From Trametes villosa (Eukaryota > Basidiomycota > Agaricomycetes > Polyporales > Polyporaceae): 64,000 nt of DNA. The notes under the pieces are model-generated. The model ran no database searches and was not told the origin of the DNA. It saw only the letters and a list, made by a program, of their open reading frames with translations. Both the position numbers and the translations under genes were made by a program. Below are positions 24,453-64,000 of this stretch, piece after piece (position 1 is the stretch's first letter; each line of letters opens with the position of its first letter). Location of the stretch: NCBI GenBank assembly GCA_002964805.2, contig PUDQ02000003.1:310001-374000 (forward strand), read 5' to 3'.

Positions 24453-25130
24453 CTACATATGTTGCACAATATACAGGCGTCTAGAATACTCCGCTTCTGC
24501 GCACAGCTGCGCTGGAACTTGCAGAAACCGGCGTGCAGGCAGTGTCAGAGGCAGTTCAACAGCGTGCATGTTCAAACATGCCCGGCTTCCGAGCCCACGC
24601 CTCGTGCTTGAGGCAGGGTGCCCGCGAAAGTCTCCATCAGTTGGGTTCACGCTTCCTCTTTCGGGCTTCCCGCCCATGTGTTTCGCGCACGCAGACTGCC
24701 GGGGATGCTGTTTGGGAGTGCCGTGGCTGCACGCTAAGCGGGACGCTTGGTCGAAGACATTCACGATCGCGATCCTCACCGTAATTGCCACAGGTAGGGC
24801 GCACATCCAGGCGTTCAAACTCAGGGCATTAGCTGCAAGTGACAACCCTGGGTTCTTCTCTAGCGATGGCATAGCGCAAATCCGGGAGCGTGATATATAT
24901 CCTGGTGAACATCAATGCACGTCTCGTCAACGCAATCGGGGGACTCGTCTCACCGAGTCCGAAGGGAGGTCTACAGAGGTCAATAAACTAGGCACTCAAG
25001 AGGCATATGTAACAGTATACAAGACCGAAAGCAGCACAGCGACCTGTCAGCGTAGTGATAGCACGATGGTAATGGTGATATAGATCGCGTCTACGAGCTC
25101 GAGAGAAGATGAGTCGCCGGGCGCATCAGG
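24453..25130 (-). pseudogene. T1: degenerate copy of the T family after K1
   Basis: Aligned by eye to T2 and T3 directly downstream of a kinase stop. The stretch around 25040-24960 matches T2 exon 1 at DNA level (LLSVLYTVTYAS versus LLSVVYTATSVP), including the splice donor GGACTCG|GTGAG. However, the matching frame has a TGA in the middle and another TGA before it, and no ATG fits. A separate open frame (24872-24453, PSLEKNPGLSLAANALSLNA) may hold later exons. Treat as decayed unless transcript data show otherwise. Confidence 0.35.
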
Positions 25131-25163
25131 AGACGCAGGCGTACTGACCGATGAAGACGCCGA

Positions 25164-26496
25164 CTACCCGACGAACTTCTTGAGACGGTACACCCCCTCC
25201 CGGGCGACCGCGACCGTGTTGTTCACTACTCGTTCGAGCGCGGGTTCGTCCCTCGGGCTTAGTCTCCAACGAGTAAGCGACTCGTTGATCGTCGCGCGCG
25301 TCCGCTCCCACTCGCGCTGTACTTGATCCGCCGTTGGCCTGAGTTCAGGCTGGCATCGCGTCATAGGCTCGATCAGCGGGAGAAGAAAGCCCATGCTGCT
25401 GTATTTCTATGTTGGTGTCAGCAGAATAGCTCCGACACAACGATGCAGTCATACCTGCTCGAACTGTTTGGAGTATAGATTGCCTAGTGCGAAGATATCA
25501 ACTTTGAACGCGTCGTATGGGACGGTGTCGGATAGCTCGGGGACGTCCGCATCGCGTCCGAAGTCTCCAAGGACTAACGGCGAAGATCCAGGGTTGAAGC
25601 GCGAGGACAAGCCGAAGTCAATGTAGTAGTAGCGAACGCCGCGGCCAGCTCTAGGCAAAGCAGTTACCGGGTGCAGTGTGTCGACGCTGTAGCCTATCCG
25701 CACTGGGTGGTGTCCGTACGGGTAGAGGCGCTTCGCGTCCATCATGATGTTGTCAACTGCCACGTCGCTGCATTGGTCATGTTCCGGGTGACTGTCGACG
25801 TCGGATGATGGGCTGCCTTACCGATGGGCGACGTTATGTTTGTGCATGAAGACCAGTCCCTGATGACCGCGTTGAGCAGCGGCACACCCAAGTCTACTTT
25901 CAGACTAACCTCGATGGTTTGGTCCACGAACTCAACGACATCGCCTATGGTAGCGAAATCTGGGTCGTTGCAAGGCCTGAGGTAAGGCATGACCATCAGG
26001 GCGCGCTGAGGGTCGAGCGGGTCGGATAGGATCTCGTAAACCTTGACGCAGTGGTTCTGAGAGTCCTGGATGGACGACAGAAACTGGGCGATGTGCATTT
26101 GGTCGCCCTGCTTCAAGAAAGACTTGATGGCTACGAGTTCATTGTTCGCAAGTCGCGTAGCGTCCATGACTTGGTAATCCTATGTGCAAAGCGAATGAGC
26201 GTCATTGCACCAGATATTGAAAAAAGGTACCATACGAGCAACAAGATAGAATCTTCGCAGAAATTAGGATCGAGGTTTGTGCCCGTCCAGGACGGCTTCC
26301 ATCCCGGTGCGTATCGCGCCCTCAGGAGGTAGCCGCGATCACTGAGGAAGCGGTAACGGTCTCGCCAGAAGAGTTCTTTGGGTGCTAATGAGTAGAATCC
26401 CTCTTGAGTGAGTTTCACATGCCGCTGTACAGACTCCTCGTCCAGGTATGCGTGATTGGGCAATCCCCTCCGCTGGTCACCATGATATCCAGGCAT
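25164..26496 (-). CDS. K1: array protein kinase
   Basis: Kinase of subfamily A, five exons. Exon 1 is 26496-26236 (87 codons, ATG start, MPGYHGDQRRGLPNHAYLDE) and exon 2 is 26179-25910. The β3 lysine is in LVAIKSF and the αC-like glutamine-rich helix in GDQMHIAQFLSS. An intron splits the Arg codon of HRD (HRDVAVDNIMMDA) and YYIDFGLSSRF carries DFG. The αF aspartate is in YDAFKVDIFALGNLY. The long insert before DFG runs from HHPVRIGY to LPRAGRGV. TAG stop is at 25164-25166. It pairs head-to-head with P1. Catalytic residues are complete, so activity is expected. Confidence 0.85.
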
Positions 26497-27018
26497 AGCT
26501 CCGTGGCAGTGTAGGGAAAGGCAAGTGCGTCAAGCGCGTGTCCGTTGCGGTTACTGCCTAGATCTTGGGCTAACCGTGGGGACAACCTGTTCCGCCCAAA
26601 CCGGTAACTATCAGGTAACTAGGGTTGTCCAGTCAGTGCCACCTCCGATGCCGCGTCTTCCTGACATTCACCGTGAGCACACAGTTCGAACACTCGGTGG
26701 TATATTTGGGTTTCATGACGTGTGAAGCACTGCGGACCTTGGGTTTTCGGCCATTCTCCATGGTTGATAGGCTTTCACAGCTTCTCAGCAACAGCGATGC
26801 ACGCATAGTCTGGCACGTTCCAAATACATCGGCGTCACTCTACGACTTCGGGAGCGATACTGGGCTTACTTAAATCATGATACGAGGGAGAAAAGCAGGG
26901 AAGAGTCTCCTCGACTCTCTGCTGCCCTGCACCCACGCCGGCCGCCCAGTATCCCGCATCGCAAACACGCGCCAAGTTCTTCGCTACTCACCTCTGCCCG
27001 TCTGACAGCTTGACTCGG
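26497..27018. promoter_or_regulatory. BP1: divergent promoter K1/P1
   Basis: 522 bp between the two ATGs. A copy of the shared array motif is at 26571-26608 (TAACCGTGGGGACAACCTGT, then TCCGCCC and GGTAAC), 75 nt before the K1 start. It is the most diverged of the readable copies. A GGCAAGTGCGTCA element lies at 26519-26531, as in BP2-BP4. Confidence 0.5.
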
Positions 27019-28280
27019 ATGTCCGATCTTGGTTGGGATATCTGGGGGGTTTTTGCTGCCCTTCTGGGGCTTCTCATCCCGTTGGGCGTGGCTTGGTTCA
27101 TCGCTAGCCTCCCCAGCGCCCGACTGCCCCCTCTACTCAGCCTTATGCAAGAGACGCAGGATCTCCTCGCCACCGCGCTCCGTGAAGGCCTCATTACCGA
27201 CGAGAAGGAACTTTGCGAGTTCAACGTCAACTTATGGGCGTGAGTCGACGCCCAGGGTTTTGTAACGCTGCAGTACTCTGACAGGAGGCGCGATATAGGG
27301 CAAGCATACGAGTAGACGAGGTTCGCGCGAAGATCTACGCCACGCAGTCGGTACGAGAGAACATGGCGAATTGGTGGCATGGTCTTTCGAGGAAGATCTC
27401 CCTGATCTATGTCGACGTTAATCGCACGCGCGTGAAGCTCATCGTGAGTGAGCTCCCGTAACCCGTCGCAGCCTACGTTCTTAGCTTGTTGCACAGAACA
27501 GGCACTCTAACGAACGCAAGAAACTCGCTTCCCAGGGGTATCCCACTGATCTTCCCGTTCCGGAGACCCGCCAAGGTAGTATCCCTCCACTGATGCTGTG
27601 GCTGTCTCGCAAGGCGTTGCTGATCGCCGCCTAGGCTCACATTCTACGCTGCCCCGTCCCCCCTCGTTCCGTCAACGTGAAACACCTACCCCGCCCGCGT
27701 GTTCTGCGCCTGCCTCTACACACATAGCTGCTCCTGCCAGTTGCCTCGCTGGTTGCGAACACTGCCCACCTCCTATCGGCACTCCACATAAAGTTCGTGA
27801 GTATCATACCCCAGCAGAGCATGTCATTTCAATGAGCTCAACATTGCCTCGCTGGCTGTCGAAGACATGGAGCCGACATGCTCTCATGACGATCGGCATC
27901 CATCTACCCCTCGCCCCACCCACCACCTGGTATCGGATACAGACCTACGAGGCGTATTATCCCTCCCACTCTCTCGTCCTCCTGCGCGTGAGCGAGAGCA
28001 ATATCGCAGCGCTACGCGACACAATATATTGTTAGTCGACCTGCACCAGGAGACGGACCTATACGGGGCGGCTCGTATCCCTGCGCTCACCGCGGCGCAT
28101 GCCAAACGTGTCAAGCGCACTCGTTTCAAGGCGCTCACCCGCCGGGTCCAGGGTACCTATGGCGTTCGGTTGCTCAGCCTCGGTGGTGCGGAAGATCACG
28201 CTGGCCTTGATCCCGAGTCACTTCTGGTTCCGCGGGCTGGGCGCAATGACTGTGATGACGAGGAGTGGGAGACAGAATAG
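27019..28280 (+). CDS. P1: small membrane protein paired with K1
   Basis: Five exons join in frame: 27019-27239, 27299-27443, 27497-27575, 27614-27796 and 27865-28280, about 347 residues. It starts MSDLGWDIWG; the earlier in-frame codon is TTG, so ATG 27019 is used. One hydrophobic span (about residues 8-30) is followed by the helix LLSLMQETQDLLATALREGL. Exon 2 has VRAKIYA and the NWWHGLS Trp pair. The last exon carries LVSDTDLRGVL, the basic VKRTRFKALTRRVQGTYGVR, LDPESLL and the acidic end EEWETE. The intron at 27797-27864 appears specific to this copy. Function unknown; presumed partner of K1. Confidence 0.75.
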
Positions 28281-28789: not shown

Positions 28790-29932
28790 CTAGGGCTTGC
28801 GCGCGCGTCCTCGCGCGTCCGGCACCAGTGCGAGCTGGCCCTGCTCAAAACCCTGCTCGGAATTCCGTCTTTGCGCGTGCGCACCAGCATCAGACGTGCA
28901 GCAGCGAAGGGCCACTCAGAAGGATGTCCATCCTCCCATGGGCGGTGCAGCTTGAGAACGCTCGAACTGCACGTCCATGGAGCATTTGCCGACAGCTCGG
29001 GCGACTTGCGGACACAGCCCACTGCATGCAGACGACAAACACGTAGCGGCCACTATATCGCTGCCTGCGTTCAATTGAAGGCGGAGGATGCGGTTCGCGC
29101 GCGCAATGAAGGCGCGAATGAGAGCACTCACGGAAGGCACGAGGTTAATGTTAGCCTTTAGGCGCGTCCAGACGGCGATATCCGGTGTTGCGCAAGTCGT
29201 GGTGATCATGCTGCGAAGCAGGTATGGGCGCTCTACCTGTTGGTGCAGAACGCATGGGCTGGGCGGTGAAACCACTGAGCTCAGCGAGGCCAACGGGCAG
29301 AAGACGCATAGTTCACTCACGATGGACGACAGCGAGGGCGGCTGTTTTCGCGTTCGCGAGCTCGGTACTCTTCGGGATTGCCGTGCCTCGATGGAGACAA
29401 TGTGCGTGGATAGCCCAGCTATGCGCGGCCATTACAGTGCTGGCATACGTCCGGTGCGCACGCAAATGGGCGGAAGGAAGCCAGGGGCGCCTAGTCATAG
29501 GCGAGCAAGAACGCGATATTGCTTCATTTTGCTCAGCCGCTCTCGAAGCCTGTGCTTGTCATTTAGTCTTCTGAAGGCTGCGTCGCCCTCTGCAAGAGAC
29601 ATACCTAAGCGTCGCTGCTGACTACGTGGTGCGATCTGAGCGATAGCTTCACAGAACGCCTTCACGCGCTCGGATACGATGTCCTCGATGGAACCTCGAC
29701 ATCTATATGGGCGATTTATTGAATAGCAATACAACCCCTGCAACTGGTAAGAAAACATCGATGCTTCAATATCGAGGCCGCTCACCGAGTCCAGAACCGT
29801 CCCTGTAGGGAGCAATAAGTCAAGCACTAAAGGGACAGATGTAGCAGTATACACGACGGAAAGCAGCGGGAAAGCGCAGAACAGCGTAGCGATAGCAGGA
29901 TATTGGTATAGGGGTGGAGCTACAGAATCCAT
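28790..29932 (-). CDS. T2: candidate small membrane protein downstream of K2
   Basis: Starts at ATG 29932, 69 nt after the K2 stop. Exon 1 (29932-29786, 49 codons, phase 0) is hydrophobic (YPAIATLFCAFPLLSVVYTA), like a signal anchor. Later coding pieces are found by comparison with T3 and T4: SIEDIVSERVKAFCEAIAQ, PKSTELANAKTAALAVV, VERPYLLRSMITTTCATPD and SDIVAATCLSSACSGLCP. The last exon, with acceptor GAGCAG, ends LVPDARGRARKP at TAG 28790-28792. Introns are inferred only from GT..AG and frame. No known family. Exon 1 and the last exon are the better supported parts. Confidence 0.4.
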
Positions 29933-30000
29933 GAGACGCCTGAGCAATATGAGCGTACCGAAGCGCTGCAGTAAGGGTGCGCACTCACGAACTCAGGAGG

Positions 30001-31325
30001 TCACTGCTTGACTAGCTTCTTCAAGCGGTACACGCCCTCCCATGCGACAGCGACGGTGTCGTTCACCACGCGCTCGATTGCAGGCTCGTTCTTCGGGCCC
30101 AGTCGCCATCGGAAGAGACTCTCGTTTATCGTCGCACGTGTGTTCTGCCACTCTCGTCGGACTTGCTCGGCGGTTGGTCGGAGCTCTGGTCGTCGTTGCG
30201 TCATGGAGGTCGTGAGGTCGTGCAGGAATTCCATGTTGTTATATTTCTACGCCGACGTCAGCAGCGCAAGTCGTAGAATGCGGGAAAAGCGCTCACCTTC
30301 TCGAACTCCTTGGAGAATAAGTGTCCCAGTGAGAAGATGTCGAGCTTGAACGCGTCATACGGGACGGTGTCGGACAGCTCTGGGACTTCCGCGTTGCGCC
30401 CAACGTCTCCGATGACGAGCGTAGAAGCGCCGGGAGGGAACCGCGAGGAAAGCCCGAAGTCGATGTAGAAGTAACGGATGTTACGACCAGCGCGGGGCAA
30501 TGGGGATACGGGGTACAGCACGTCAGGGCTGAACCTGATGTGGACAGGATGGTGTCCCGTCGGGTAGAGAGCTCTCGCATCCATCATGATGTTCGCGACT
30601 GCCACGTCTCTGTATTCGTTACTTTGTGATGTTCAATTGACGGGGGATGTCTTACCGATGCGCTACGTTGTGTCTGTGCATGAAGGCAAGTCCCTGGAGG
30701 CCGTATAAGCTAAGCGCCGGGATCACTATGTCTGCCAGCTCACATCAATTGTTTGATCTACGAATTCAACGACGTCCCCTACAGTGGCGAATTCGGGATC
30801 GTTGCAGGGCCTCAGGTATGGCATAACCATCAAGGCTAGATGGGACTCGTATGGGTCGGATAGGATCTCGTAGACCGGGACGCAGTGGTTCATGGGATCG
30901 ACGATAGAAGCGAAGAACTGCGCGATATGCAGCTCCTGTCCCTGCCTGTAGAAGGACTTGATGGCGACTAGCTCGCGGTTCGAAAGCCGCGTCGCGTCCA
31001 TGACTTGATAATCCTGTGTTACACGAAGCGAGTGAGTGCACAGCCGTCTCAGGGGAGACAGACAGCCTACCATCAAAAGAATAGAGTCTTCGCAGAACGT
31101 GGGGTCGAGATTTGTTCCTGTCCAAGACGGTTTCCAGTTCGGCCAATATCGCGGCCTCAACATATAGCCATGGTCCTTCAGGAAGCGGTAGCGCGCTTGC
31201 CAGAATAGTTCTTTCGGAGAGAGGCTGTAGATACCATCCCGCGTTAATTGGGCATAGGTCTCCACGGAGGCATCGTCTAGAACAGCGTGATTTGGTAGTC
31301 TTCTCTGCTTGACCGGTGTAGACAT
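30001..31325 (-). CDS. K2: array protein kinase (reference copy)
   Basis: Five exons, all junctions in phase: 31325-31071, 31013-30744, 30693-30656, 30609-30297 and 30246-30001. Together they give 373 residues. An N-terminal domain of about 85 residues (LPNHAVLDDASVETYAQLTR, then RPRYWPNWKPSWTGTNLDP and CEDSILLM) precedes the kinase fold. Kinase parts are β3 VAIKSFYRQG, VMPYLRPCNDPEF (hinge), HRDVAVANIMMDA (catalytic loop with D and N), YFYIDFGLSSRF (DFG) and VPELSDTVPYDAFKLDIF (APE-like element and αF Asp). No GxGxxG loop is visible before VAIK. About 35 residues (YPTGHHPVHIRFSP...) lie between the catalytic loop and DFG, longer than in classical kinases. The C-lobe ends RLKKLVKQ. Cytosolic; no signal or membrane span. 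Confidence 0.88.
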
Positions 31326-31781: not shown

Positions 31782-33102
31782 ATGTCAGACCTAGGCTGGA
31801 ATCTCTGGGGCGCTGTCGCGGGCGTCATTGGGACTTTGCTCGCCGTGCTACCCTTTCTTAGTGTCTGGCTCTACAAGCGGCTACCGTATTGGAAGCTGCC
31901 GGGCCTTGTCGCTCTCATGGAGGAGACGCAAGAATACCTCGCTACTGCTATCCGTGAAGAATTGATAACCAACGAGAGCGATCTCACTCAGTTCAAGGTC
32001 AGGCTTCTGGGGTAAGTCGCAGTTAAATTTTGCTATTCGTGGTGAATTGCTGACGTCGTATTGGCTTTCCGTGGGTTCAGGGCGACCGTACGCGTCGAGA
32101 GGGTTCGCGCCAAGATCTACGCCGAAAATTCCTTCACAGACAACGTCAAAAACTGGTGGAGTGGTCTGTCCGGAGGAATGTACTCCCTGGAGGTGGAGCT
32201 ACAGTCGCTTCGCATGAAACTAGCAGTGAGTCCGCCTTCAGACCATGCCGTATCTTCAGGCCGCGATGTGCCAACGCCACAATCGATCAGGAGCGAAACT
32301 CGAAAGAACGCGCTCAACGAGCAGCTCGGGGCTTGACGCTCGGAATTTTGTCTCTGCCAGTGGCAAACGGCCCAGGTCCGATCCTTCCGTATTCCTTGTG
32401 GCGTCATCTCATACCGGATTTTGTAGGAGCCAGTCAGTCTGAAGAGTTCGGGTATGCGCCGACAGCGCCCTTGCTTCGAGACACTATGTCCTGGTCGCCT
32501 CAGCAAACCTGGCGTAGCCCGGCGCCGGCTCCGGACAATACTCCGTGGCGAGATCGAACCCCCATCTATAGCGCCTCTCCTGCTTCCTATTCTGCTGTCG
32601 GTGTAGCAGGCAGCGAGGCAGATGTGTACAACGCTGCATCTCCCCCTCTGCTGCCCGCAGTGGCGTACCTCGTTACCAGAGGTCCCCCGTCTTACCCCCT
32701 CAATCTGGCCGCCGTCCCACCCACCATGTCGTATCCGACATGGATATGCAGAGCCTGCTCTTCCTTGCCCTGTCCCCGGGTCCCAATCCCGATCATCGAA
32801 CGTCCGAGGACGAGCACGAGCGGGCGGCGCGAGGAGAGGCCTTGCTTCATCTTCGCAGGCAGCTGCATGGCCTCGATGCCCTTCCGACCATAGGCGGTAG
32901 CGCGAAGTTCCCGAAACGAGGTGCCAGACGGGGCACCCGTTTCAAGTCGCTCAGGCGTCTTCTGCGCCGCACCTATGGCCTTCGTCTGGCGGATGTCGGT
33001 GGAGACGCTTATGCGCCCCTCATCGACCCGGAGTCGCTTCTCTCCCAGCGTGCTGAAGAGAGCAGCCGTCATGACGAGGACGACGAGTGGAATGACGAAT
33101 AA
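31782..33102 (+). CDS. P2: small membrane protein paired with K2
   Basis: ATG 31782. Exon 1 31782-32011 (230 nt) holds MSDLGWNLWG, the span GVIGTLLAVLPFLSVWLY and LVALMEETQEYLATAIREEL. Exon 2 32081-32225 (145 nt) holds VRAKIYA and NVKNWWSGLS. Exon 3 starts at 32291 (ERNSKERAQRAARG). The last exon, in another frame, has HHVVSDMDMQSLLFLALSPG, the basic RRGTRFKSLRRLLRRTYGLR, IDPESLL and the end DEDDEWNDE, stop 33100-33102. The junction between exon 3 and the last exon is not settled: one option is an intron from 32452 to about 32606, longer than usual. Otherwise intact. Confidence 0.72.
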
Positions 33103-33593: not shown

Positions 33594-34810
33594 TCAATGA
33601 TGAAGAGATAGAAGTGCGAATCGGCCCGCAATCCGTGCACCGCCCATACGCACGGCTGATCTTGGGCTGACGCGTCCTCGCACGTCCGGCACCAATTCAT
33701 GCTTCTCAAACGCCGCCCGGAATTCCGCCTTTGCCTGCTGGAGGGCGCGTGCACACCAGCATCAAAGTCAGTCTTGCGAAGGGCGACTTTTGCCCACAAA
33801 GGAAGGCTGACCTCGAGGCTCCCGAGAGGTGTCATCGCGTCGGCTCTCCCCGTAGGCGATGCAGCTTGAGAGAGGACAAGCTGCACGTCCATGGGGCATT
33901 CTGCCGGCGGGTCGGACACAGCCTAGTGCCGGGAGATGAATCACAAGGAGCAGTCACTGTATTGCCGCCGCCTGCGCTGGATGAAGTGCGAGTGGTAGGG
34001 CGGAGGCAAGCGGTGCGTGCAGCTTAATCTGGTGGTGTATCGATACGTTCAAACGACGGTATCATACCGAGCGCGTCAAGAGTGTGCGCGAGGACGGTAC
34101 CAAACGCATAGGCCGCACACCTGATGCGATGAGCTTAGTGAAGCTAACGGAAGAACGACGAAGTCTTCACGCACAATGAGGGTGGCGACGTTGGCATCCG
34201 CGAGCTCGGTCCTCTTCGGAGCCGTCATGCAGGCTGGCCAAGAGCGATGCGGAAGGACAGCCCAGCTAGGCGCGTCGATTCGAGCGCCAAGATACGCTCG
34301 ATGCACAGATTGCGGCAGAGGCAAGCCAAAGGGAGCCGCGCTGTACGCGAGCGTGCATGCGACTCCGTATATGACCCAGCCGCCATTGAGGCCTATAGAT
34401 ATGGGCCCGGTCAGATGCTGAAGACCGGATCGCCGGGCTGTGCGAGAGGCATACCTGAGTGCAGCGAATGCCTGCGCGATGTGACCTCTCCGACAGCCGC
34501 ACGGCTCTCTTGACGCGCGCAAGGCACGCAGGATATCCTCCTTGAAAGGCTGTCATCTATATGGACAATATCTTCGAAGGGCAGTACAAAGCTGCAACTC
34601 GTGAGAGCGCTACGACCTGTAGAAGGCGAAGTTGCTCACCGGATCCTGAGCTGCCCCTTGGGGGAGCAATAAGCCATGCACTAAAGGGACAGGCGTAGAC
34701 GTAGCAGTATAGATAGTGTAAAGCGGCAAGAGAGCACAGAGCAGCGTAGCGATAGCAAGATATTGGTATAGGGGATACGCTACCGCGTCACTAAAACATC
34801 GAGACGGCAT
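33594..34810 (-). CDS. T3: candidate small membrane protein downstream of K3
   Basis: ATG 34810 is 49 nt after the K3 stop. Exon 1 (34810-34640, 57 codons, phase 0) contains YQYLAIATLLCALLPLYTIY, the same hydrophobic core as T2, and ends at the same donor context. Next pieces are FKEDILRALRASREP, PKRTELADANVATLI and GNTVTAPCDSSPGTRLCP. The last exon after CTCCAG reads AKAEFRAAFEKHELVPDVRG and stops at 33594-33596. Fits T4 and T2 in order and spacing. Internal introns are provisional. Confidence 0.4.
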
Positions 34811-34858
34811 GAGGGCCCCAAGGTCTTGCAGCGAAAATGAGCACTTACTGAGGAGCGA

Positions 34859-36203
34859 TCACTGCTTGACGAGCTTCTTCAAGCGGTATACGCCCTCCCA
34901 TGCGACGGCGACGGTGTCGTTGACTACCCGCTCGAGCGCGGGTTCGTTTTTCGGGCTAAGCCGCCAGCGAAAGAGGGACTCATTGATCGTCGCCCGCGTC
35001 TTCTCCCACTCTCGAAGGACTTGCTCGGCGGTAGGCCGCAGGTGTGGTTGTCGTTGCATCATGGGTTCGATCAACGACAAGAGGAACTCCATGTTCTTGT
35101 ACTTCTGCGCAGAAACGGTAAGCAGACAAGCACGAAACCGAGGTCGGAGGACTAGCCTGTTCGAACTCGCTGGAGTATAGATCGCCTAGCGCGTATATGT
35201 CGACCTTGAAGGCGTCGTATGGAACGGGATCGGACAGCTCTGGAACGTACGCCCTCCCGACGTCTCCGACCACGAATGGGGAGGACCCGGGCTGAAACCG
35301 TGTCGATAGTCCGAAGTCGATGTAGTAGTAGCGGATGCGACGGCCGGTTCGGGGCAAAGGCGAAACAGGATACAGGGCGTCGGGAGTGTAGCCTAATCGT
35401 ACGGGATGGTGACCATTCGGATACAATGGTCTAGCGTCCATCATGATATTCGTCGCTGATATGTCACTGTATGAGACAAACAATTTCGTGAGCGAATCGT
35501 ACCACGAGAGAGTGTGCGTTGTCTTACCGATGAGCTACGTTGTGTTTGTGCATGAAGACGAGCCCCTAGAGGCCACATGAGATGAACAGGATTTTGATCG
35601 CATCCCGTCACATACCTCTATGGTTTGGTCAACGAATTCAACGACATCACCGATGGTAGAGAACTCCGGGTTGTTGCATGGCCGAAGGTAGGGCATCACC
35701 ATTAAGGCGAGCTGAGGGTCGTGCGGATCGGGGAGGATCTCGTGAACGGTAACGCAGTGGTTCTGGGGGTCATGGATAGACGAAAACATCTGCGCAATGT
35801 GCATCTCTTGGCCCTGTCTCGCGAAGGATTTAATGGCAACCTGCTCGCGAGTCGACAGTCGGATCGCGTCCATGACTTGGTAGTCCTATGCACCATGTCG
35901 TTAGTACCTATTCAAACGCCTATAGAAGAAGACCGTTGAATATCGTACGAGTAGTAGTATTGAGTCTTCGCAAAACGTAGGGTCGAGGTTGGTGTTTTCC
36001 CATGATGGTCTCCAGTTCGGAGCGTACCGCGGACGCAAGAGGTAGCCGTGATCCTTCAGGTAGCGGTGTCGTGCTTGCCAGAACAGTTCCGTCGGCATGA
36101 GATTGTAAATTCCATCACGAGTGAGCTTCGCGAAGCGTTCCGCGGAGCTGTCGTCAAGGACAGCATGGTTCGGCAGCTTTTGCTGCCTCCTTGGTGTAGA
36201 CAT
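34859..36203 (-). CDS. K3: array protein kinase
   Basis: Subfamily A. Starts MSTPRRQQKLPNHAVLDDSS at ATG 36203; stop 34859-34861. Distinguishing points are QVAIKSFARQGQEMHIAQMF, VTVHEILPDPHDPQLALMVM, HRDISATNIMMDARPLYPNG, YYYIDFGLSTRF and, after DFG, a GDVGRAYVPELSDPVPYDAF segment one or two residues shorter than in K1 and K2. SWENTNLDPTFCEDS replaces SWTGTNLDP. HRD, N and DFG are intact. Paired with P3. Confidence 0.86.
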
Positions 36204-36704: not shown

Positions 36705-37841
36705 ATGTCAGACCTGGGGTGGAATATTTGGGGTGCCATCGCGGGTGTCGCCGGCACCGTACTGGCCATAGTGCCCTTCCTTGCAATCTGGATCTCTGCC
36801 CGATTGCCTACGACGAAGCTGCCCGCTCTGCTTAGCCTCACGGAGGAGGCTCAGAAACTCTACGCCACCGCTCTCCGGGAGCGACTCTTCGCTGATGAAG
36901 GCGACCTCAATCGACTCAAAAACCAGATGATATCGTGAGTACCCTCGTCGCTTATACTCAGACACATGAGCCGACATCTTCCTTGTGGCGTAGTACGACA
37001 GTCCGCGTGGAAGAGGTGGCCGCTCTCGTCTACGCCACCAGGACCCGCAAAGAGAACGTGAAGAACTGGTGGCGCGGTGTCACCGGGCGAATCCTCTCCC
37101 TCCACGAAGAAGTGGTTGCGTTGAGGGCCAAACTGGCCGTGAGTGATATTCGCAACAGTCGGATAACGCGCGCCACATCCGTTGACATTGCTGCGCGTAG
37201 ACACGAAACTCTAAAGAACGAAAGAGACGGGTATCTCAAGGCCTTCCCATCGATATGTCGTCCTTGAGCGTCGAAGGTTCGTTCGCTCGATTTGCGCTTC
37301 CAAATCACTCATTGACCTTGACGGTACAGAACATGACGCGCTTTCTGCGTCTAGCTTCATCGTCTCGGCTCCCGTGATCTGCGAAGAGCCCGAGAAGATG
37401 TCTTCCGAAGAGGAAGACCTTGGGTCTTGCTCGACGAACCTCTTCTCCGATCACCGAGACCCAGCGACGTTCGCATCTCCCCGCCACAATCTATCCGACA
37501 CGGACCTGCGTCACCTTCTCTCTCTCGCCCTTTCGAATTCCCTCGTGCTTGACGGCGGAAGGACGAGCCCCCGAGCTTCGCGTACAGATCTGTTACTCCA
37601 TCTCAGCCGGCAGCTCTACGGGTCCGGACATCCCTGCGTCTGCGGACATGGGGATCGTGGCGCGCCAACAAAACGGCGTGCTAAACGCAGTCGCTTCACG
37701 ACACTCGCGCGTTCTGTGCGACGAACGTATGGCGGGGGGTTGCTCGGCGGGAGCAGGGAGACCAGCCTGGACCCTGAGTCACTGCTGCCGCTGCGTACTG
37801 AGTACGGCTGCTGCAACGAAGAAGAGTGGAGCGACGAGTAA
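36705..37841 (+). CDS. P3: small membrane protein paired with K3
   Basis: ATG 36705, exon 1 36705-36934 (230 nt) with MSDLGWNIWGAIAG and the span GTVLAIVPFLAIWI, then LLSLTEEAQKLYATALRERL. Exon 2 carries VRVEEVAALVYA and ENVKNWWRGVTGRILSL. Exon 3 has ETLKNERDGYLKA. The last exon starts by 37374 and shows NLSDTDLRHLLSLAL, the basic AKRSRFTTLARSVRRTYGGG, LDPESLL and the end NEEEWSDE. Stop TAA 37839-37841. The exon 3/exon 4 boundary is not fixed. Confidence 0.73.
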
Positions 37842-39365: not shown

Positions 39366-39397
39366 GAAGTGAAGGACTCACTCACCGACGTAAAGGG

Positions 39398-49401: not shown

Positions 49402-49490
49402 TGACGAACGCTGTAACGCTATCGGGCCTGTGAGCGCCGAAGGTACTCCGAAGACAGTACCACGTACCTGCGTCGTCGCGGAAGAAACGT

Positions 49491-51343: not shown

Positions 51344-52613
51344 ATGTCAGACCTTGGCTACAATGTCTACGGCGTCATAGCCGGCACTCTCGGCCTACTG
51401 GCCATCCTTCCTCTCACCTGGCTCATCACCCATTTCCCTTCTCGGCAGATGCGCATACTAGAGAGCCTACTTAAAGACACAGAGGACCTGTTCCGCAAAG
51501 GACTCGAAGATGGGCTCCTCACTCGTGAAACAGAACTCCATCAGTTTCACTCCGGCATCTGGGCGTAAGTAGACGACTTCCCAGCTGAGGCATTTCAATG
51601 CACCTACTAACATCCTCCGCCTATGTGCAGCATCAACCTTCGTATCGACGACATACGCCCGGTTGTCAGTTCCCTGAGATCATCTTGGGCCGAGTTCAAG
51701 GCATGGTGGGGCGGTCTATCACGCATGATACTCCGGCTCCAGGGGGACGTAGGAGAACTTCGTGCTAAAATCGTAGTAAGTAGCCTGACGATTCATCATG
51801 GTGTTCACCTCTGTCCTAGCCTAACCTCCTGGTACCTAGGCAAGCAGCTCCAGAGACCGGAAAGAACTCGCTGCGCAAGGGTACGCAAGTGCGCTTGCTA
51901 GACTATCCGGGGCGCGGACTCAAGGTAAGGGTGCATGTCGCTCGACTCTTGCTGCGGCTGAAGCAGAGCCTGTGTTGCTAGAACGTCGTGCGAGTGTGTT
52001 CATGCACGCTATTCCTCCGGTGCCGCGCCACAGCTGCCCAGCTCCGTTCATACGTCGGGACAGCGCCACCCTGACGCCGTTCGATGAGGAGTGCTACCCA
52101 GCCATGCCCCGCACAGACTCTCCATCGCGCATTCCCTACGACGGTAGTGATGACGGCGACGGCGACGGCGATGGCGACGACACGGATCTTCCACCAAGTC
52201 GATCGCCCTACCGTCCACCTACTCCTCTCTGCGACAATGGTGGTCGCCTCGACATCTCCGACGCCGATCTTCCGTACCTGCCCGGAGCCGTTCTGGTTGC
52301 CTCTCAGGCACGCACGCGCGACAAACATCGCGAACGGCACTCGGCGCGTCAAGACATGTTGCGTCGCTTCTCCAGGCAGCTCTCCACTTCTTCGATGTCA
52401 CATCGGTACCCCCGAGATCGTCCTTCCACCCAACGAGGTTACTCGCGCAACCGTTCCAAGACACTCTCCGAGCTGCTTCCAACGCACCGTCACGTCGATG
52501 ATGCGTGCATGCAGGGCGGTGGCGTCGTACAGCCCGGCGTTCCCCCGCTCTCCGCACGGTACAACCTGGCTTGCAACGAGGCTTACGATGGGGATGACGA
52601 GAGTGACGCCTAA
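51344..52613 (+). CDS. P7: membrane protein paired with K6
   Basis: Exon 1 51344-51564 (221 nt): MSDLGYNVYGVIAG, span LGLLAILPLTWLITHF, ILESLLKDTEDLFRKGLEDG. Exon 2 (after a CAG at 51630): INLRIDDIRPVVSSLRSSWA, FKAWWGGLSRMILRLQGDVG. The last exon has an Asp/Gly run encoded by GACGGCGAC repeats (DGSDDGDGDGDGDDTD), DISDADLPYLPGAVLVASQA, the weaker basic patch GYSRNRSKTLSELL and the end DDESDA. DPESLL is missing. Stop TAA 52611-52613. Same gene order and phases as the others, with a diverged C-terminus. Confidence 0.7.
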
Positions 52614-53773: not shown

Positions 53774-54468
53774 ATGTGTACCGACCTGATCAGCCCCGTT
53801 CTCATCCTTCCTCTCAGAATCGTCGCCATCTTCGGGGTGCTCGCTGCATACCTGCTCTTCCTGTGCCGATGGAGCGTCAGGAGGCTCTCTGCGTGCACTC
53901 AGGCTGCGCGCGCTGCAGAGGCTCAATTCGACACTCTTGTCGAAGAAGGCCGCATGCACAACAAAGCCTCGATGGAGCTCTCCGCTTGCATGGACGAGTA
54001 CGTAGCGCCGTGTCGTCGATGCTCACGCTTGCTTACCTCTTGGGTTTTCCCGTTGCCAGCATCCAGGCTCGCATCGAGGGCCTGGAGCTCGTGAGCAACA
54101 GGCTGGCCTACTTCAAGGGGCTGGCCCTCGCCTTGGATCTTCGCCACCAATACGAACTATACAGCGTATCTCGAGATTTGGCCAAGGTTCAAGCAGCCCT
54201 TCGGGTGAGTCCGCGTCCACTCACCGAGACCAGCGGCCTTCAACGTGACTGATGGGTCGCTTCCAGAGTTTTGCTCCGTGAGCAGGGTCTCACTGCGTTG
54301 ACGCATACTGTGGCGTATGCAACCTGCGCGCCGCACGCTTGTCTCTACGGATGCCCAGGGTTCGATAGGCGCCGCCTGCGAACCTTCCGCGTTACCGTAT
54401 GCGTCAACTTAAGCCCTACGGCTGGACTGGCTTCTCCCTTCTCTGCGACGTTCCCTCCCTTGACTTGA
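53774..54468 (+). CDS. P8: short, diverged P-family gene, no kinase partner
   Basis: ATG 53774: MCTDLISPVLILPLRIVAIF, span VLAAYLLFLC, then RAAEAQFDTLVEEGRMHN as the post-membrane helix. A second exon after CAG reads RIEGLELVSNRLAYFKGLAL and YSVSRDLAKVQAALR, matching the heptad part of exon 2 in other P genes without the Trp pair. The rest (LLREQGLTALTHTVAYA...) ends at 54468 without the basic, DPESLL or acidic motifs. Either a truncated member or one whose last exon is lost. Membrane topology should be as for the others. Confidence 0.5.
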
Positions 54469-55279: not shown

Positions 55280-56019
55280 ATGGGTATCATTTCTTGGATC
55301 GTACTGGGGTTCCTTCTCTTCGTTCTGCTCCGCCAGCTCCCATCTCACAAGTTGTATGTACTCGTGCGAGACTTACGGGAGGCGCAGACGCTATTCGCGT
55401 CTAGCGTCGAAGAGGGCTTGATTTACGACTCTTACGTCGACGGCTACCGTGAGAAGCTAAACAAGTATGTCCGCGAATCCTTCCGTATCTTCTACCTTTC
55501 GAAGAGACTAACGGTAATTGCGGTACGCGCAGACTTCAGGCCGAGACAGATAAACTGTCTGCCATGATGAACAGCGTGTTGCCGTTCTCTCCCAGCGACT
55601 TCATGTTCATGCTCAGCGGCGTAACGCGCCAGTGCTACAAGCTTCGCGACGACGTCGAAAAGGTCCACAACGATATCTCCGTACGTCCACGCTCCCCATC
55701 GCGGTGTAAGTTACTGTCGCTCACGATCATTGTTCCGCCCGCACAGAGGACGAGCGCCCACGAAAGGCTTCGCAGGCCGATAGGTCTCGCGACGTCTCCG
55801 CAGGTTTATGGTGAATCCCCGCCCCGGCCGTCCATCAGTCGCTAGTCTCTAACTCATAGAGCAGATTACAACTTCGAAGCATCGACATCCACTTCTACGC
55901 CTCTTCTCCCCATCTCTTCACCAACCGACTCCTCCCCTTCTCCGGTTCATCACTCGGCGTATTATCGTGCCCTCGGGGCCACCTTCACGCCTCCAGTTCA
56001 TACCGCCCGTTCACTCTAA
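55280..56019 (+). CDS. P9: short P-family gene, no kinase partner
   Basis: Exons 55280-55464 and 55533-55680 are in phase (+2, then 0) exactly as in other P genes. The start is MGIISWIVLGFLLFVLLRQL, with the span almost at the N-terminus. LVRDLREAQTLFASSVEEGL follows, and exon 2 has LQAETDKLSAMMNSVL and LRDDVEKVHNDIS. Exon 3 begins RTSAHERLRRPIG. A last exon reads DYNFEASTSTSTPLLPISSP and stops after FTPPVHTARSL at 56017-56019. The basic segment, DPESLL and acidic Trp tail are absent, so the cytosolic tail is much shorter. The exon 3 donor (GTCTCG) is weak. Confidence 0.5.
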
Positions 56020-56458: not shown

Positions 56459-57003
56459 CTACACGTCTCGACAACCCGACGTCCCGAAGCCACGGAACGT
56501 GCGAAGCACATCCACTCCTGCCTGGAGAGGGTGTGGGAGACTGGGCAGGTGTAGTAGATCACCGCGCAGTGAGCGAGCGCCGCTGTGCTGTATGACGCGG
56601 GACGACGTCTCGCCTGTCTTGTTGTACGCACTGTGAGGTTGATGATGAGATAAATGAAGTAAGGACGTCGTAAAGGTACTCGCCTGGTGTACCATTACGA
56701 TGGAAGTCGGCTGGAGAGCTCCGGAGAAGCCTGGACGACGGTTTCGAGCCTCTTGAAAGCGAGACGATCGCATCCCAGGTTGAGGCGTGATAGGTAGAAC
56801 ACTCCACTCCAGATCCTCGTTGATTGAGATGTAGTTGATACAGCGTATACAGCGTGGTGCCGGAGCCGGCCCGGGAATTCGAGAGCGAGACAGCAAGGTC
56901 GATAGATGGGGAAGGATACATGGCCAAGGATACCTACACACGCGAGATCAGACGATGACGCCGTCGCAGTGGAGGAAAGTACTGACAATGGGGCTGGGTT
57001 CAT
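56459..57003 (-). CDS. T7: candidate T-family gene overlapping the K7 stop
   Basis: An open frame starts at ATG 57003, which overlaps the K7 TGA as ATGA. It reads MNPAPLSVLSSTATASSSDL and runs to 56695. Other frames downstream are open too (56941-56459). DNA near 56850-56740 matches the region after K8 (ACGAGGATCTAGAGT type, then CACGCCTCAAC), so the sequence is conserved between two modules, but no frame is clearly favoured. Protein coding is unproven. Confidence 0.25.
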
Positions 57004-58319
57004 CCAACAAACCGTCTAATTCCGTCTCGTGCAGCAGCGATGGTGTCGTTGAGCATGCGCTCGGGTACAGACTCGGACCGCGGGCTCAGTCGCCAGCGCG
57101 ACTTCGAGGGGTTCTCGAGCTTGCAGAGTTGTTGGAACATGCCGATGAGCTGGTTCGCCGGTGGTCTGAGCTCCGGCTGGCGTTGCTTCATGCAGTCTAT
57201 GAGGGGCTTCAGGAAGTCCGTGTCGTGGTATTTCTGTAAGTCTGTCGGTTTAGCCACATGCGTTGGAGGCGGTGCGAGACTAGATCTTACCTGCACGAAC
57301 GCTTTGTAGAATAGATTGCCGAGTGCGTGTATGTCTGCTTTGTATGCGTCGTATGGTACCGTCCAGGATAGCTCCGGCACTTCGGCATCGCGCCCAACGT
57401 CGCCAATGACCATGGAAGGGGCCCCTGGGGGAAATCGGACCGAGAGGCCGAAGTCGACATAGAAGTACTTGATCTTGACGTCCATACGCCTCAGAGGCGT
57501 GAGCTGAACAACGGCGTCGGGAGTGCTGTCCAGCCTCACTGGATGATGTCCTTGGGGATAGAGTTGTCGGCCGTCCATCATGACGTTCAATGCGGCTATG
57601 TCCCTAGCGTTATGGTAAGCAGCGTTTTAAAACGATATAGATTCAACAATAACGAAATTACCTATGAGCTATTGAGTGTGAATGAAGGAAAGCGAGGCCC
57701 TAGAGAGCGTGAAGTGTCTGACTGAACGAGATGTCAATAGGAAGCGCACCTCTAACATCTGGCGGACGAACTCGATGACCTCACCGACCAATTCGAACTC
57801 CGGGTTGTCGAAAGGGCGCAGATACGGCATGACCATGAAGTGCCAAGTTGGATCGGCCGGGTCGATGAAAACATCCTTAACGGGTACGCAGTGGTTGTGT
57901 GGGTGCTTCAAAGAAGTGAGGTATTGCGCGATCTCGATCTCCTGGCCTTTGTTCTGGAGGCGTTTGATAGCGACGAGCTCCCCGTCGGGTCCTGTGGCAT
58001 CAATTACATACATTCTCTGTACATGTCATAGTCGTCAGCCTATGACATCACGAGGAAACGCAGTGCAGCTCACCATCGACTCGATAGAGTCTTCACAGTA
58101 GAACGGGTCGATGCTTGTATTCGTCCATGAAGGTTGCCAGTCCGGCGAGTATCGGGGCCGTAGCGTGTACCCGCGTGTAAGTAGGTGCCGTTGCTTGCTG
58201 CTCCACATTTTTTCGAGTGGTGTGAGGCCGTAAGTACCCCGGCGGGTCATCTCGACTTGTCTCTGCATCGCTTCCGGTGACAGATATGCATAGCTGGGCA
58301 ATCTGTTCCGATCTTGCAT
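57000..58319 (-). CDS. K7: array protein kinase, subfamily B
   Basis: ATG 58319 (MQDRNRLPSYAYLSPEAMQR), stop 57000-57002. Subfamily B marks are GELVAIKRLQNKGQEIEIAQ, DPADPTWHFMVMPYLRPFDN, EVIEFVRQMLE, HRDIAALNVMMDGRQLYPQG, YFYVDFGLSVRF, YDAYKADIHALGNLFYKAFV, and a C-lobe with LRPPANQLIGMFQQLCKLEN replacing the TAEQVLREWEKTRAT stretch of K1-K4. The tail is short (RRFVG). The HRD Arg codon is again split by an intron, here as AG|G. Paired with P10. Confidence 0.86.
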
Positions 58320-59157: not shown

Positions 59158-60265
59158 ATGCTCGACTTCTTCAATGTCTGGGACGTTGTCATAGGCATCT
59201 TCAGTCTAGGCGGCGCGTGGCTGTTACACTACCTCTACCGCCAGCTGCCGTCGAAGAAGGTGGATGTTTTGCTCGCCCTCCTCGACAAGACTGCGGCGTT
59301 TTTGGCGTCTTGCACCGAGGAAGGGTTATTGGATGCAGTTTCTATCGGCGAATTCACACGCCAGATTGGCAGGTACGCCACCAACGGCAGAATCATTTGT
59401 GGTGGCGGCGATACTCATTCCAATTTCCCGTCCACAGGGTACGGGACAAAACGAAGGATTTGCAGTTGGCAGCGATTAGTGCCAAGGATTGGACTGAGGA
59501 CGTTGCAAATCTGTTCAAAGGTCTTACCTGGAAAATCAACCAGGCATGTCGTGATTTACACGAGCTCGCTGTAGGCATATCGGTAAGTCAGGTCACGGTT
59601 CACAACATTAATCAACATAACACCCGGCGCAGACTGCCAGTCTGCGCGAGCGCGAACGACTCGAGGCCGAAAGACGTGCCTCCGCAAACGCCACACTCGG
59701 AGGCGCTCTGGGTGCGTGACCCCCTTCCGTGCCATTCGCTGTGCTGTGTGATGACATCAAGTCCATAGCATCTACTCCCTCACCCAATAGCGCCACGGAG
59801 CCCCCCGCGAATCAAACACCTGTGGAACCCTTGCCGGGGGAACCTCTCGGCGCGGTGGCGTCGAGCGCCCCGTCCTCCTACGATGCTCCCCCAGTCTCTT
59901 CCAGTGCAGGCGACGCGGAGAACGACTCCTCTCTACCTCTACCTGCCTCCCAGCAACAGCACCAACAGCGTTCTTTTAAACAGCCACCGGTCGACGCGGA
60001 TTCCTCGATGTTGGCGTGCGCCACGCCCCAGCCTACACCGCCACATCGCACCAGCACGCAAGATTCGTGCGGCACCCAGGCCAGTGCCGCAAGCACCCGC
60101 ACCCCTCCTCGCAGGAAACATAGTACGCCCGGATCTCGGGGGCGCGCCTACACTCGCATCCGCTATGCTCGCCACCGCTATTCGGTGCAGTCCCAGGCGT
60201 CTGATGTCGTCGGTCTACTGGACCTATCGTCTATTGAGCTTGTTGACGAGCCGGACGACGAATAA
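59158..60265 (+). CDS. P10: membrane protein paired with K7
   Basis: Exon 1 59158-59372 (phase +2): MLDFFNVWDVVIGIFSLGG, span continuing AWLLHYLY, then VLLALLDKTAAFLASCTEEG. Exon 2 after ACAG: RVRDKTKDLQLAAISAKDWT, DVANLFKGLTWKINQACRDL. Exon 3: SLRERERLEAERRASANATL. The last exon is Ser/Pro/Gln-rich (SQQQHQQRSF), then basic SRGRAYTRIRYARHRYSVQS, LLDLSSIEL and the acidic end VDEPDDE, stop 60263-60265. DPESLL and the C-terminal Trp are missing. Same skeleton, own sequence, matching the separate subfamily of K7. Confidence 0.68.
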
Positions 60266-61163: not shown

Positions 61164-62495
61164 TCAGCCGACGAACTGCCTAAGATTGCTTAATCCGTCC
61201 CGCGCAGCGGCGATAGTGTCATAGAGCACGCGTTCAGGAATCGTCTCGCCGGACCGCGGGCTCAGTCGCCAGCGCAACTTCGAGGGGTTCTCGAGTTTGC
61301 AGAGCTGTTGGAACATGCTAACGAGCTCGCTTGCCGGAGGCCTGGTTTCTGGTTGACGCTCCTTCATGCGTTCTACGAGGGGCTTCAGGAAGTCCGTGTG
61401 GTGGTATTCCTGAATATTTTTGGTTCAGACATACGCGTCGGATGCTTTACGAGATGAGGAGTTACCTTTACGAACGTTTTGTAGAAAAGGTTGCCGAGCG
61501 CGTGTATGTCTGCCTTGTATGCATCGTACGGCACCTCCCAGGACAGTTCAGGCACTTCGGCGTCACGTCCAACATCGCCGATAACCATCGAGGGAGCTCC
61601 TGGGGGAAATCGCACCGAGAGGCCGAAGTCGACATAGAAGTACTGCATCTGAGCGTTCACGCGGCGTAGTGGCGTCAGTTCCGTTATACCGTCGGCAGCG
61701 CAGTGCACCCGGGCAGGATGGTGTCCTTCAGGATAGAGTGGTCGACCGTCCATCATCACGTTCATCGCAGCTATGTCCCTAGCCATGTGAGTCAGCATCA
61801 TGCACGTAGTACGATCGCGATTGGAAGAATACCTGTGAGCTATCGAATGTGAATGGAGAAAGACGAGGCCCTGGAGAGCGTGAAGCGCCTGGATTGGCAG
61901 GTGATGTCAGCGGGGAGCGCACCTCTAGCATCTGACGGGCAAACTCGATGACTTCGCCGACTGATTCAAACGCAGGATTGTCGAACGGTCGCAGGTAAGG
62001 CATGACCATGAAATACCAGGTCGGGTCGGTGGGGTCAGGAAAGATATCCTCCACGGTGACGCAGTGATTGTGGGGATGTTTAAGAGAAGTGAGGTATCGC
62101 GCGATCTCTATCTCTTGGCCCTTGTTCTTGAGGCGTTTGATCGCCACAAGCTTTCCATCGGAAGCTCTAGCATCGATGACGTTCAGTCTCTGTGGCGGTT
62201 TGGCATAGCGTTAGCTCACATTCACGCAGACGATTAGATGGAAACTTACCCTCGACACGATCGAGTCTTCACAGTACATTGGGTCTAAATTCGTACCCGC
62301 CCACGAAGGCCTCCAATCCGGCGAGTAGCGTGGACGAAGCGAGTATCCCCGTCGAATGAGATGCGGCTGCTTGCCCATCCACATTCTTTCGAATAGTGTG
62401 AGAGAATATGTGCCTTGTCGGGTCATCTCTTCCTGCCTCTGCGTCGCCTCGGGTGACAGGTATGCATACCAGGGTAGCTTGCTTTGATTGTGCAT
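61164..62495 (-). CDS. K8: array protein kinase, subfamily B, without a P partner
   Basis: ATG 62495 (MHNQSKLPWYAYLSPEATQR), stop 61164-61166. Close to K7: KLVAIKRLKNKGQEIEIARY, EVIEFARQMLE, HRDIAAMNVMMDGRPLYPEG, YFYVDFGLSVRF, RPPASELVSMFQQLCKLENP. The tail is longer than in K7 (AARDGLSNLRQFVG) and matches K9. No plus-strand P gene is found between it and K9, so its divergent partner seems lost or never copied. Confidence 0.86.
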
Positions 62496-63492
62496 CTGTA
62501 TGATATCTATTAAGTATCGCAGCCCACATCATAACAACCATTTGGAATGTCGGACAAACCGGTGTAACTGAGAATGCGCCGGTGAGCAGTGCCTCGGCGT
62601 GTGGCAACTCTGTGAAGGCGGGTTTATCGTATTGGCAAAAGTGATGGGCAAAAGCTGACTCTTCTCCGCTACTCAGATTTTCCTCTGTGCGCAGTGAGCG
62701 CGCTGACGAGCGCCCGAGAAGCCTCGGTGGCAATACTAAGAGCTGGTTTGCGCTGCTTCATGGAATCGATGGGAAGGCGGCAGAACCAGAGCTGTGAGCC
62801 TCTCTGCTCACTCCGGATTCACAAATCCGGCGCCGGCTGTATGACGTATGTGCGGATCGCCCTGGCGAGTCAGATCTGTGGCGGCCATTCAAAGACACCC
62901 GGTGCAATCACCGGACGACATGCGACACTCTCCGCATCCTCGCTCGATCCGTAGCAACGAGACCCGGAGCAGATGCCATGCCGCGCCGCGAAATAGTGCC
63001 TGTTCGGTTACGCAGAAGCCACGCACATCCAACCCCCGTAGAGGGAGGCGTGTGCGATGGGATATGGGGAGTGAAATCTCGGAGACAGGAGACACGGTGC
63101 GCGCTGCTATGTGCGGGCCTAGCGGTCTTCGCTCGGAGTCTTTGAGCAAAGGCCTGAAGCTGTAGGCGTACAGTATGAAGATGCTGCAGCCATACTCACC
63201 TGGCACATCATCCAAGCGGAACACTACGCAGGGCCTATGCAGGGTTATCAGCCCAAGTGGACATCGGGAGCACGGACGTGATGGTTCCGTCTCAGGTCGG
63301 AGTGCGACATCAGTGTGTACCCACAGCATGCCTATGAATCGAGATGAGCTGATGTACAGTACGAATAAATTCTGTGATACGGGAGCAACCTAGCAGGGTC
63401 GACAGATAGACGGTGTATGGTTACCTACGAACCCAAGGTCAGCTGATGGTAGCATGACGAGGAGCGTACTCACAGCAGGGGTAATGTTCACC
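62496..63492 (-). other. T9: region between K8 start and K9 stop
   Basis: Holds the K8 promoter and the expected T position after K9. A minus-strand open frame at 63329-62889 (LRIERGCGECRMSSGDCTGC) is Cys-rich but starts at a non-ATG codon and shows no match to T2-T4. No P gene on the plus strand. Confidence 0.25.
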
Positions 63493-64000
63493 TCAACTAA
63501 CGAACTGCTTGAGATTGCTAAGCCCGTTCCGCGCAGCCGCGATAGTGTCGTTGAGCATGCGCTCGGAGGCGGACTCCGACCGCGGGCTTAGTCGCCAGCG
63601 CAACTTGGAGGGATGCCCGAGCCTGCACAGCAGCTTGAACATGTTGACGAGCTCGCCTGCTGGCGGCCGTAGGTCTGGTTGTCGCTGCTTCATGCAAACC
63701 ACGAGGGGTTCCAGAAACTCCGTATGGCGGTATTTCTGTGTCTGTAGTATCAGCTGTACGCCATCACTCGACGACGATGATCTGATGACCTCACCTGTTG
63801 GATCTCCTGGTAGAAGAGGTTGCCGAGAGCGTATATGTCCGCCTTGTAGGCATCGTACGGTACTGTCCGCGATAGCTCGGGAACCTCGGCGTCGCGGCCT
63901 ACATTCCCGACGACGTACGAAGACGCCCCTGGTGTGAACCTCACGGAGAGGCCGAAGTCGATGTAGAAGTATTTGATATCGTGGTCGATGCGTCGCAGCG
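63493..64000 (-). CDS. K9: array protein kinase, subfamily B, 5' part outside the window
   Basis: Only the C-lobe is inside. From the right edge: DHDIKYFYIDFGLSVRFTPG (DFG), GRDAEVPELSRTVPYDAYKA, DIYALGNLFYQEIQQ, an intron, then LRPPAGELVNMFKLLCRLGH and the end GLSNLKQFVS, stop 63493-63495. The catalytic loop and N-terminus lie beyond position 64000. Nearest to K8. Confidence 0.85.
   Translation of the reverse strand, partial: AATHRPRYQILLHRLRPLREVHTRGVFVRRRECRPRRRGSRAIADSTVRCLQGGHIRSRQPLLPGDPTGEVIRSSSSSDGVQLILQTQKYRHTEFLEPLVVCMKQRQPDLRPPAGELVNMFKLLCRLGHPSKLRWRLSPRSESASERMLNDTIAAARNGLSNLKQFVS

What the first reader, a model, noticed from the sequence alone, without database searches (positions are those of the whole stretch)
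24453..64000. Tandem array of kinase / membrane-protein / T modules, possibly an undescribed system
Nine kinases (minus) alternate with ten P-type membrane protein genes (plus) in a fixed head-to-head layout. A third candidate gene follows each kinase. The same layout in at least seven units, with conserved exon lengths and phases, means the module, not single genes, is duplicated. Rapidly diverging tandem pairs of a kinase and a single-span membrane protein resemble recognition, defence or allorecognition loci. That function is inference; I know no published match.
Basis: partly seen in the sequence, partly recalled or inferred. Interest (0 to 1): 0.92.

Follow-up and report, generated by a model that had tools for sequence, protein, structure and literature searches.

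The report
Tandem kinase and membrane-protein gene pairs
A fungal chromosome carries a row of eleven intact kinase genes, nine of them lying head to head with a gene for an undescribed membrane-anchored protein; the pairs were copied together long ago and kept, which suggests, but does not show, that the two proteins work as partners.

Summary
The kinase/membrane-protein array is real and larger than the window. Eleven intact kinases (nine in the window, K9 cut by its end) share one exon structure; nine face a P gene head to head (seven pairs in the window, two beyond). P has one N-terminal membrane helix, a helical region, a variable linker and, in P1-P6, a conserved tail; no Pfam family or solved fold matched. 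K and P distances across the nine pairs correlate strongly (Mantel r 0.94), as expected if pairs duplicated together; this does not show interaction. Charges suggest, weakly, that P faces the cytosol. The pairing is not obligatory: K8 and K9 lack P, P5 and P8b lack K, other clusters of this kinase family show no P in the parts read, and 15 P-superfamily matches lie on contigs without a match to these kinases. Best reading: an old, retained two-gene signalling module. Boldest open reading: a kinase-based reader/writer locus for basidiomycete self/non-self recognition, untested here.

The parts
25164..26496 (-). K1 kinase; start inferred from an in-frame ATG, first exon uncertain in the model
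   Evidence: spliced alignment, no frameshift or stop; ATG from ORF text
27019..28277 (+). P1, head-to-head with K1
30001..31325 (-). K2 kinase
31782..33099 (+). P2, head-to-head with K2 (exons 3 onward uncertain: models needed one frameshift in the variable linker)
34859..36203 (-). K3 kinase (one GC-AG intron in the model)
36705..37838 (+). P3, head-to-head with K3
39398..40737 (-). K4 kinase
41186..42369 (+). P4, head-to-head with K4; N-terminal region folded
43048..44211 (+). P5, closest to P4, without a kinase
45361..46702 (-). K5 kinase
47187..48465 (+). P6, head-to-head with K5
49491..50854 (-). K6 kinase
51344..52610 (+). P7, head-to-head with K6 (3' part approximate)
53774..54091 (+). 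P8a, doubtful P-like ORF with hydrophobic N-terminus
   Evidence: (E 0.18)
55280..55680 (+). P8b, weak P-like gene, exons 1-2, unpaired
57000..58319 (-). K7 kinase
59158..60262 (+). P9, head-to-head with K7 (3' part approximate)
61164..62495 (-). K8 kinase, no P found
63493..64000 (-). K9 kinase, 3' part; continues about 0.8 kb beyond the window, no P found
28804..29069 (.). T repeat copy 1
33664..33976 (.). T repeat copy 2, no sign of coding
38348..38617 (.). T repeat copy 3, 87% identical to copy 2 over 254 nt, no sign of coding

Best explanation
The locus is an old, selectively retained tandem array of a two-gene signalling module. Each full unit makes a small kinase with the core catalytic motifs (K) and, divergently from it, a membrane-anchored protein (P) whose helical region, variable linker and tail probably lie in the cytosol, on the kinase's side of the membrane. 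I propose that P recruits its cognate K to a membrane, as adaptor or substrate, through its helical region and tail, and that pairs diverged to stay private. Shown: intact K genes, conserved gene structure, paired duplication, P more diverged than K. Inferred: topology, kinase activity, shared regulation, physical K-P interaction, any output.
For: Eleven of eleven kinases intact with the catalytic motifs although synonymous sites are near saturation: 40 of 55 K pairs had pS 0.58-0.75 (the other 15 were higher and not listed), with dN/dS 0.09-0.24 in the 34 where it could be computed. Nine of eleven kinases have a head-to-head P, gaps 448-838 bp. K and P distances correlate (r 0.945, p 1.5e-4; partial 0.925), mean amino-acid distance 0.43 for K and 0.69 for P (P over exons 1-2 only). 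In P1-P6 the C-terminal part keeps DPES and a late Trp in 6 of 6, while the linker falls to 17-24% identity against 33-42% in the tail and about 50% at the N-terminus (5 full-length P). P4 N-terminal model: helix 3-33 and further helices.
Against: Correlated distances follow from joint duplication alone. K8 and K9 have no P; P5 and P8b have no K. In the parts read, clusters of the same kinase family on C1 and C77 show no P, and P-superfamily genes lie away from it. No shared promoter motif above shuffles in nine intergenic regions. Charge evidence for topology is weak: the 20 residues after the helix are net positive in 6 of 11. The structure model is weak (pLDDT 72, pTM 0.33). The tail was aligned for P1-P6 only. 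Saturated dS makes the dN/dS values rough.
Confidence: 0.42

Rival explanations
1. K and P are neighbours by history only: a segment holding one kinase and one unrelated membrane-protein gene was duplicated repeatedly, and both families persist for separate reasons.
For: Both families exist without the other in this genome as far as searched; unpaired K8, K9, P5 and P8b; no shared promoter motif; the Mantel result is also expected under this reading.
Against: Nine of eleven kinases still have a head-to-head P after near-saturating synonymous divergence, and P1-P6 keep a constrained tail.
Confidence: 0.4
2. The array is a kinase-based reader/writer locus for self/non-self recognition: K modifies (writes on) its own P or a common target, P reads the state at a membrane and signals or executes cell death when it meets an unmodified target after hyphal fusion.
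For: A published model assumes a locus encoding linked reader and writer genes in basidiomycetes, drawn from Podospora het-V, a methyltransferase gene with an MLKL-Tudor gene (PMC8229728). The array has a linked modifying enzyme and a more diverged membrane partner in many pairs.
Against: No polymorphism, expression or phenotype data. No Pfam family reached its cut-off for P. Structure searches gave nothing usable.
Confidence: 0.12
3. A decaying kinase expansion, mostly pseudogenes.
For: Kinase expansion in mushroom fungi is known for the FslK lineage (PMC3937382), and such copies could be decaying.
Against: 11 of 11 kinases have open spliced frames and catalytic motifs; nonsynonymous change is far below synonymous.
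Confidence: 0.03

Closest known systems
Podospora anserina het-V (PaMt1 methyltransferase writer, PaMt2 MLKL-Tudor reader/executor), as described in passages of PMC8229728
   Same: A modifying enzyme together with a second gene that reads the modification
   Different: Here a kinase instead of a methyltransferase, P with no recognised MLKL or reader domain, and a tandem array; no phenotype known
FslK, fungi-specific kinases related to tyrosine kinases, expanded in Agaricomycetes (PMC3937382, abstract and passages)
   Same: Mostly the kinase domain alone (16 of 241 have extra domains), expansion in mushroom fungi, conserved catalytic residues
   Different: Membership not testable here (no sequences held); the word 'tandem' does not occur in its main text and no linked membrane gene appears in the passages seen
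FunK1 / Pfam Pkinase_fungal PF17667
   Same: Large fungal kinase family; K5 gives a faint match
   Different: 12.1 bits against a cut-off of 24.1: not a member by that test
RIPK3-MLKL (recalled, no call)
   Same: A kinase paired with a helical, membrane-acting partner would work alike
   Different: No sequence or fold similarity found for P; the analogy rests on recall only

Membership tests
Protein kinase superfamily | Pkinase profile over cut-off and catalytic Lys, HRD Asp, DFG | tested here: met
   K5: PF00069 53.1 bits, cut-off 31.7 (only K5 scanned); VAIK, HRD and DFG in 11 of 11
Canonical Ser/Thr kinases | Lys in the catalytic loop (HRDxKxxN) | tested here: not met
   HRDx[AS]xxN in 11 of 11 K; the meaning of the Lys is recalled knowledge
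FunK1 (PF17667) | Profile score above the curated cut-off | tested here: not met
   12.1 bits, cut-off 24.1, K5 only
FslK | Place inside the FslK clade of the kinase tree | not testable with these tools
   FslK sequences are in a supplement that could not be read here
HeLo / MLKL-type death executors | Recognisable profile | tested here: inconclusive
   No Pfam family at its cut-off for 8 P N-terminal regions or full-length P4 and P5; distant members could be missed
HeLo / MLKL-type death executors | Fold match to a four-helix bundle | tested here: inconclusive
Single-span receptor with ectodomain | Large domain on the outside of the membrane | tested here: inconclusive
   Only 4-11 residues precede the helix; N-side charge -2 to 0, C-side net positive in 6 of 11; prediction only
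Reader/writer incompatibility locus | Linked enzyme and reader genes with high allelic diversity and cell death on mixing | not testable with these tools
   One genome, no strains, no phenotype; only linkage of an enzyme gene with a second gene is seen

The most novel reading that the evidence does not exclude
A kinase-based reader/writer system of basidiomycetes: each K/P pair is a private phosphorylation mark and its membrane-bound reader or executor, and the set of pairs carried by a strain defines self.
Probability: 0.12. Interest if true: 0.88.

Novelty: new variant of a known kind. Interest (0 to 1): 0.5.

Why it matters
Mushroom-forming fungi carry kinase expansions whose exact functions are unknown (stated for FslK in PMC3937382). 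A co-duplicated membrane partner gives a concrete handle: it says what to pull down with each kinase, where in the cell to look, and which pairs to swap. It is also a plausible candidate for the linked reader/writer loci that a 2021 model assumes for basidiomycete incompatibility (PMC8229728); the passages I read name no basidiomycete gene for that role.

Tried and rejected
T as a third gene: rejected. Open frames of 11 intergenic regions compared all against all: 34 cross-region matches at E<=0.01 among 497 ORFs, 30 of them among the three regions that hold the DNA repeat, in several frames and both strands; the other 4 are short (E 8e-5 to 0.009). A minus-strand ORF just downstream of K2 and K3 (29498-29992, 34613-34858; 52% identity over 75 aa, E 3.6e-15) was the best candidate; its mismatches by codon position are flat (39/29/31), and one search shows no equivalent of that length elsewhere. 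My first thought that T was a GINS Psf3 fragment was not confirmed (no Pfam match for three T pieces) and is dropped.

A second partner family in the C1 kinase cluster: I first read two head-to-head ORFs there (L060 2566 and 7952) as related; tblastn finds each only as itself there, so no family is claimed.

Shared promoter motifs: none above shuffles. Known fold for P: nothing usable; a family not listed is not excluded. PPxY motifs: only P5 among five full-length P checked. P profile against solved structures: best E 0.0096, mostly coiled-coil proteins.

Not in print: no such module seen in searches (listings only, except PMC3937382: abstract and passages; PMC8229728: passages and section 12). 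The library is limited by licence.

Full report
What is there. The window is G000:C3:310001-374000 of an unnamed 46.7 Mb genome. Gene structure and kinase family look basidiomycete; that is inference, no taxon was established. A spliced-alignment script gave nine kinase genes on the minus strand in the window (K9 cut by its end) and two more in the 10 kb after it, so the array spans about 25.2 to 74 kb in window coordinates. All eleven models have exons of closely matching length, with a 38-nt exon, no frameshift and no in-frame stop. The script allows only GT or GC donors and AG acceptors, so splice sites are canonical by construction; one donor, in K3, is GC. K1's first exon is uncertain (an in-frame ATG at 26496 serves), as are the starts of K9 and K10.

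The P genes. Eight P genes in the window are supported, with exon 1 of 215-230 nt ending in phase 2 and exon 2 of 145 nt, 148 in P6 (for P9 and P10 the end of exon 2 varied with the query). P8b (55280) is weak and P8a (53774) doubtful. P10 and P11 lie beyond the window, opposite K10 and K11. P2's later exons are uncertain, since both models needed one frameshift in the linker. Nine kinases face a P across 448-838 bp (K10's gap rests on an assumed start); for K8 and K9 neither the profile nor a hydrophobicity scan found one, and P5 and P8b have no kinase.

Is the pair a unit? Over nine pairs, K and P amino-acid distances correlate at r 0.945 (p 1.5e-4, 20,000 permutations), and at 0.925 after removing position along the array; mean distance is 0.43 for K and 0.69 for P, P being measured over exons 1-2 only. 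All array kinases form one clade (98/98) against four kinases of the C1 cluster and one long-branched one of C77; the P tree has a single well-supported fork (P4-P5) and weaker ones that group P1-P5 with P7 and then P6. This says that pairs were duplicated together. It does not say that the proteins interact, because shared history alone gives the same correlation. Synonymous sites are near saturation: 40 of 55 K pairs had pS below 0.75 and were listed, 34 of them with a computable dN/dS of 0.09-0.24; of 53 P pairs listed, 31 gave 0.10-0.66. The copies are old and K is constrained; the P values are rough.

What the proteins look like. K5 matches Pkinase over its cut-off and Pkinase_fungal below it. 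All eleven have VAIK, HRD and DFG, but the catalytic loop reads HRDx[AS]xxN, without the Lys usual in Ser/Thr kinases (the comparison is recalled). The best solved relatives of K5 are weak matches to ordinary kinases (E 1.1e-5 at best). In 11 P checked (10 of the array and the C101 gene) the best hydrophobic segment lies within residues 5-30, the 4-11 residues before it carry charge -2 to 0, and the 20 after it are net positive in 6, neutral in 2, negative in 3. I read this as weak evidence for a cytosolic C-terminal part. A model of the P4 N-terminal region gives helices 3-33, 39-58, 65-80, 101-108 and 114-146 (pLDDT 72, pTM 0.33; it includes an in-frame intron as a low-confidence insert), without a usable fold match or Pfam family. 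In P1-P6 the C-terminal part keeps DPES and a late Trp in 6 of 6; in five full-length P the linker has 17-24% identity, the tail 33-42%, the N-terminus about 50%. The tails of P7 and P9-P11 were not aligned.

Elsewhere in the genome. A P3 query (E up to 10) finds 16 exon matches, 15 in the array (8 loci) and one on C101 at E 0.10. The C101 gene is better supported by the profile (E 4.2e-7 and 1.6e-8 for its two exons) and has exon 1 of 212-224 nt and, with the P7 query, exon 2 of 145 nt; 14 kb around it show no kinase by tblastn with two kinase queries. A query from a more distant relative finds 20 matches; 16 have E<1e-3, one of them P10 and 15 outside the array: C115 (7, the query's own place included), C50 (5), C64, C89 and C83. 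C50 and C115 may partly be the same genes, so the number of distinct genes may be lower. Profile comparison supports kinship with P over 74 columns (probability 94.9, E 4.6e-8, 18% identity), with the caution that a membrane helix makes up much of the match; three examples score 81-97 in spliced alignment to the C101 protein against at most 59 in 44 unrelated pieces, and end exon 1 in phase 2. None of these five contigs matched the K family. The general kinase search scored 123 of 308 candidates, so other kinases near them are not excluded; on C83 one lies about 1.1 kb from a P-like match. The K family has about eleven members on C1 and at least seven on C77 (my count of core matches); the parts read with the P profile (L056, L058-L061) show no P.

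The third gene. The repeat called T was found in three places in the genome, all in this array (a search that may miss common words). Copies 2 and 3 are 87% identical over 254 nt, yet mismatches fall evenly on the three codon positions (9/13/13), against 55/21/13 in a K exon of the same two units, and indels between copies are not all multiples of three. It is not a gene by these tests. Why it is better conserved than its surroundings is unexplained.

How it most likely works. I favour a cognate pair: P holds K at a membrane and is its substrate or scaffold. The head-to-head layout, retention of nine pairs and the constrained tail speak for it; the independent occurrence of both families, the unpaired members and the lack of a shared promoter motif speak for the rival that the neighbourhood is historical. 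I give these 0.42 and 0.40. The recognition reading is the most interesting one. PMC8229728 (passages and section 12 read) assumes for basidiomycetes a locus with linked reader and writer genes drawn from het-V; the word kinase does not occur in it. The array fits the linkage part of that idea and nothing else has been tested, hence 0.12.

Limits. Statements about other fungi come from the two papers named or from recall.

Noticed in passing
G000 C115 and C50 (L069, L070, L071): A P-superfamily branch (MASxYDxxG...SLLAF...) in many copies on two small contigs; C50:48910 and C115:20180 give identical match scores, so the contigs may be two haplotypes or a duplication.
   Followed up: partly
33664-33917 and 38348-38600: Repeat without sign of coding, 87% identical between units whose kinases are about 70% identical in DNA; gene conversion or a constrained element.
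   Followed up: partly
G000 C1:8587-8630 kb and C77:209-337 kb: Two further kinase groups of the same family; the 38-nt exon recurs in the four C1 members modelled in full. No P in the parts read.
   Followed up: partly
L060:2566 and L060:7952: ORFs of about 90 residues head to head with two C1 kinases, about 0.9 kb away; unrelated to each other by tblastn.
   Followed up: partly
L068 (C101:24236): Partial second P-like copy about 6 kb from the C101 P gene, with a similar downstream reading frame.
   Followed up: no
G000 C83:455980-457910: A general kinase match about 1.1 kb upstream of a P-superfamily match on the same strand.
   Followed up: no
K1-K11: Catalytic loop HRDx[AS]xxN lacks the usual Ser/Thr-kinase Lys in 11 of 11 array kinases.
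   Followed up: partly
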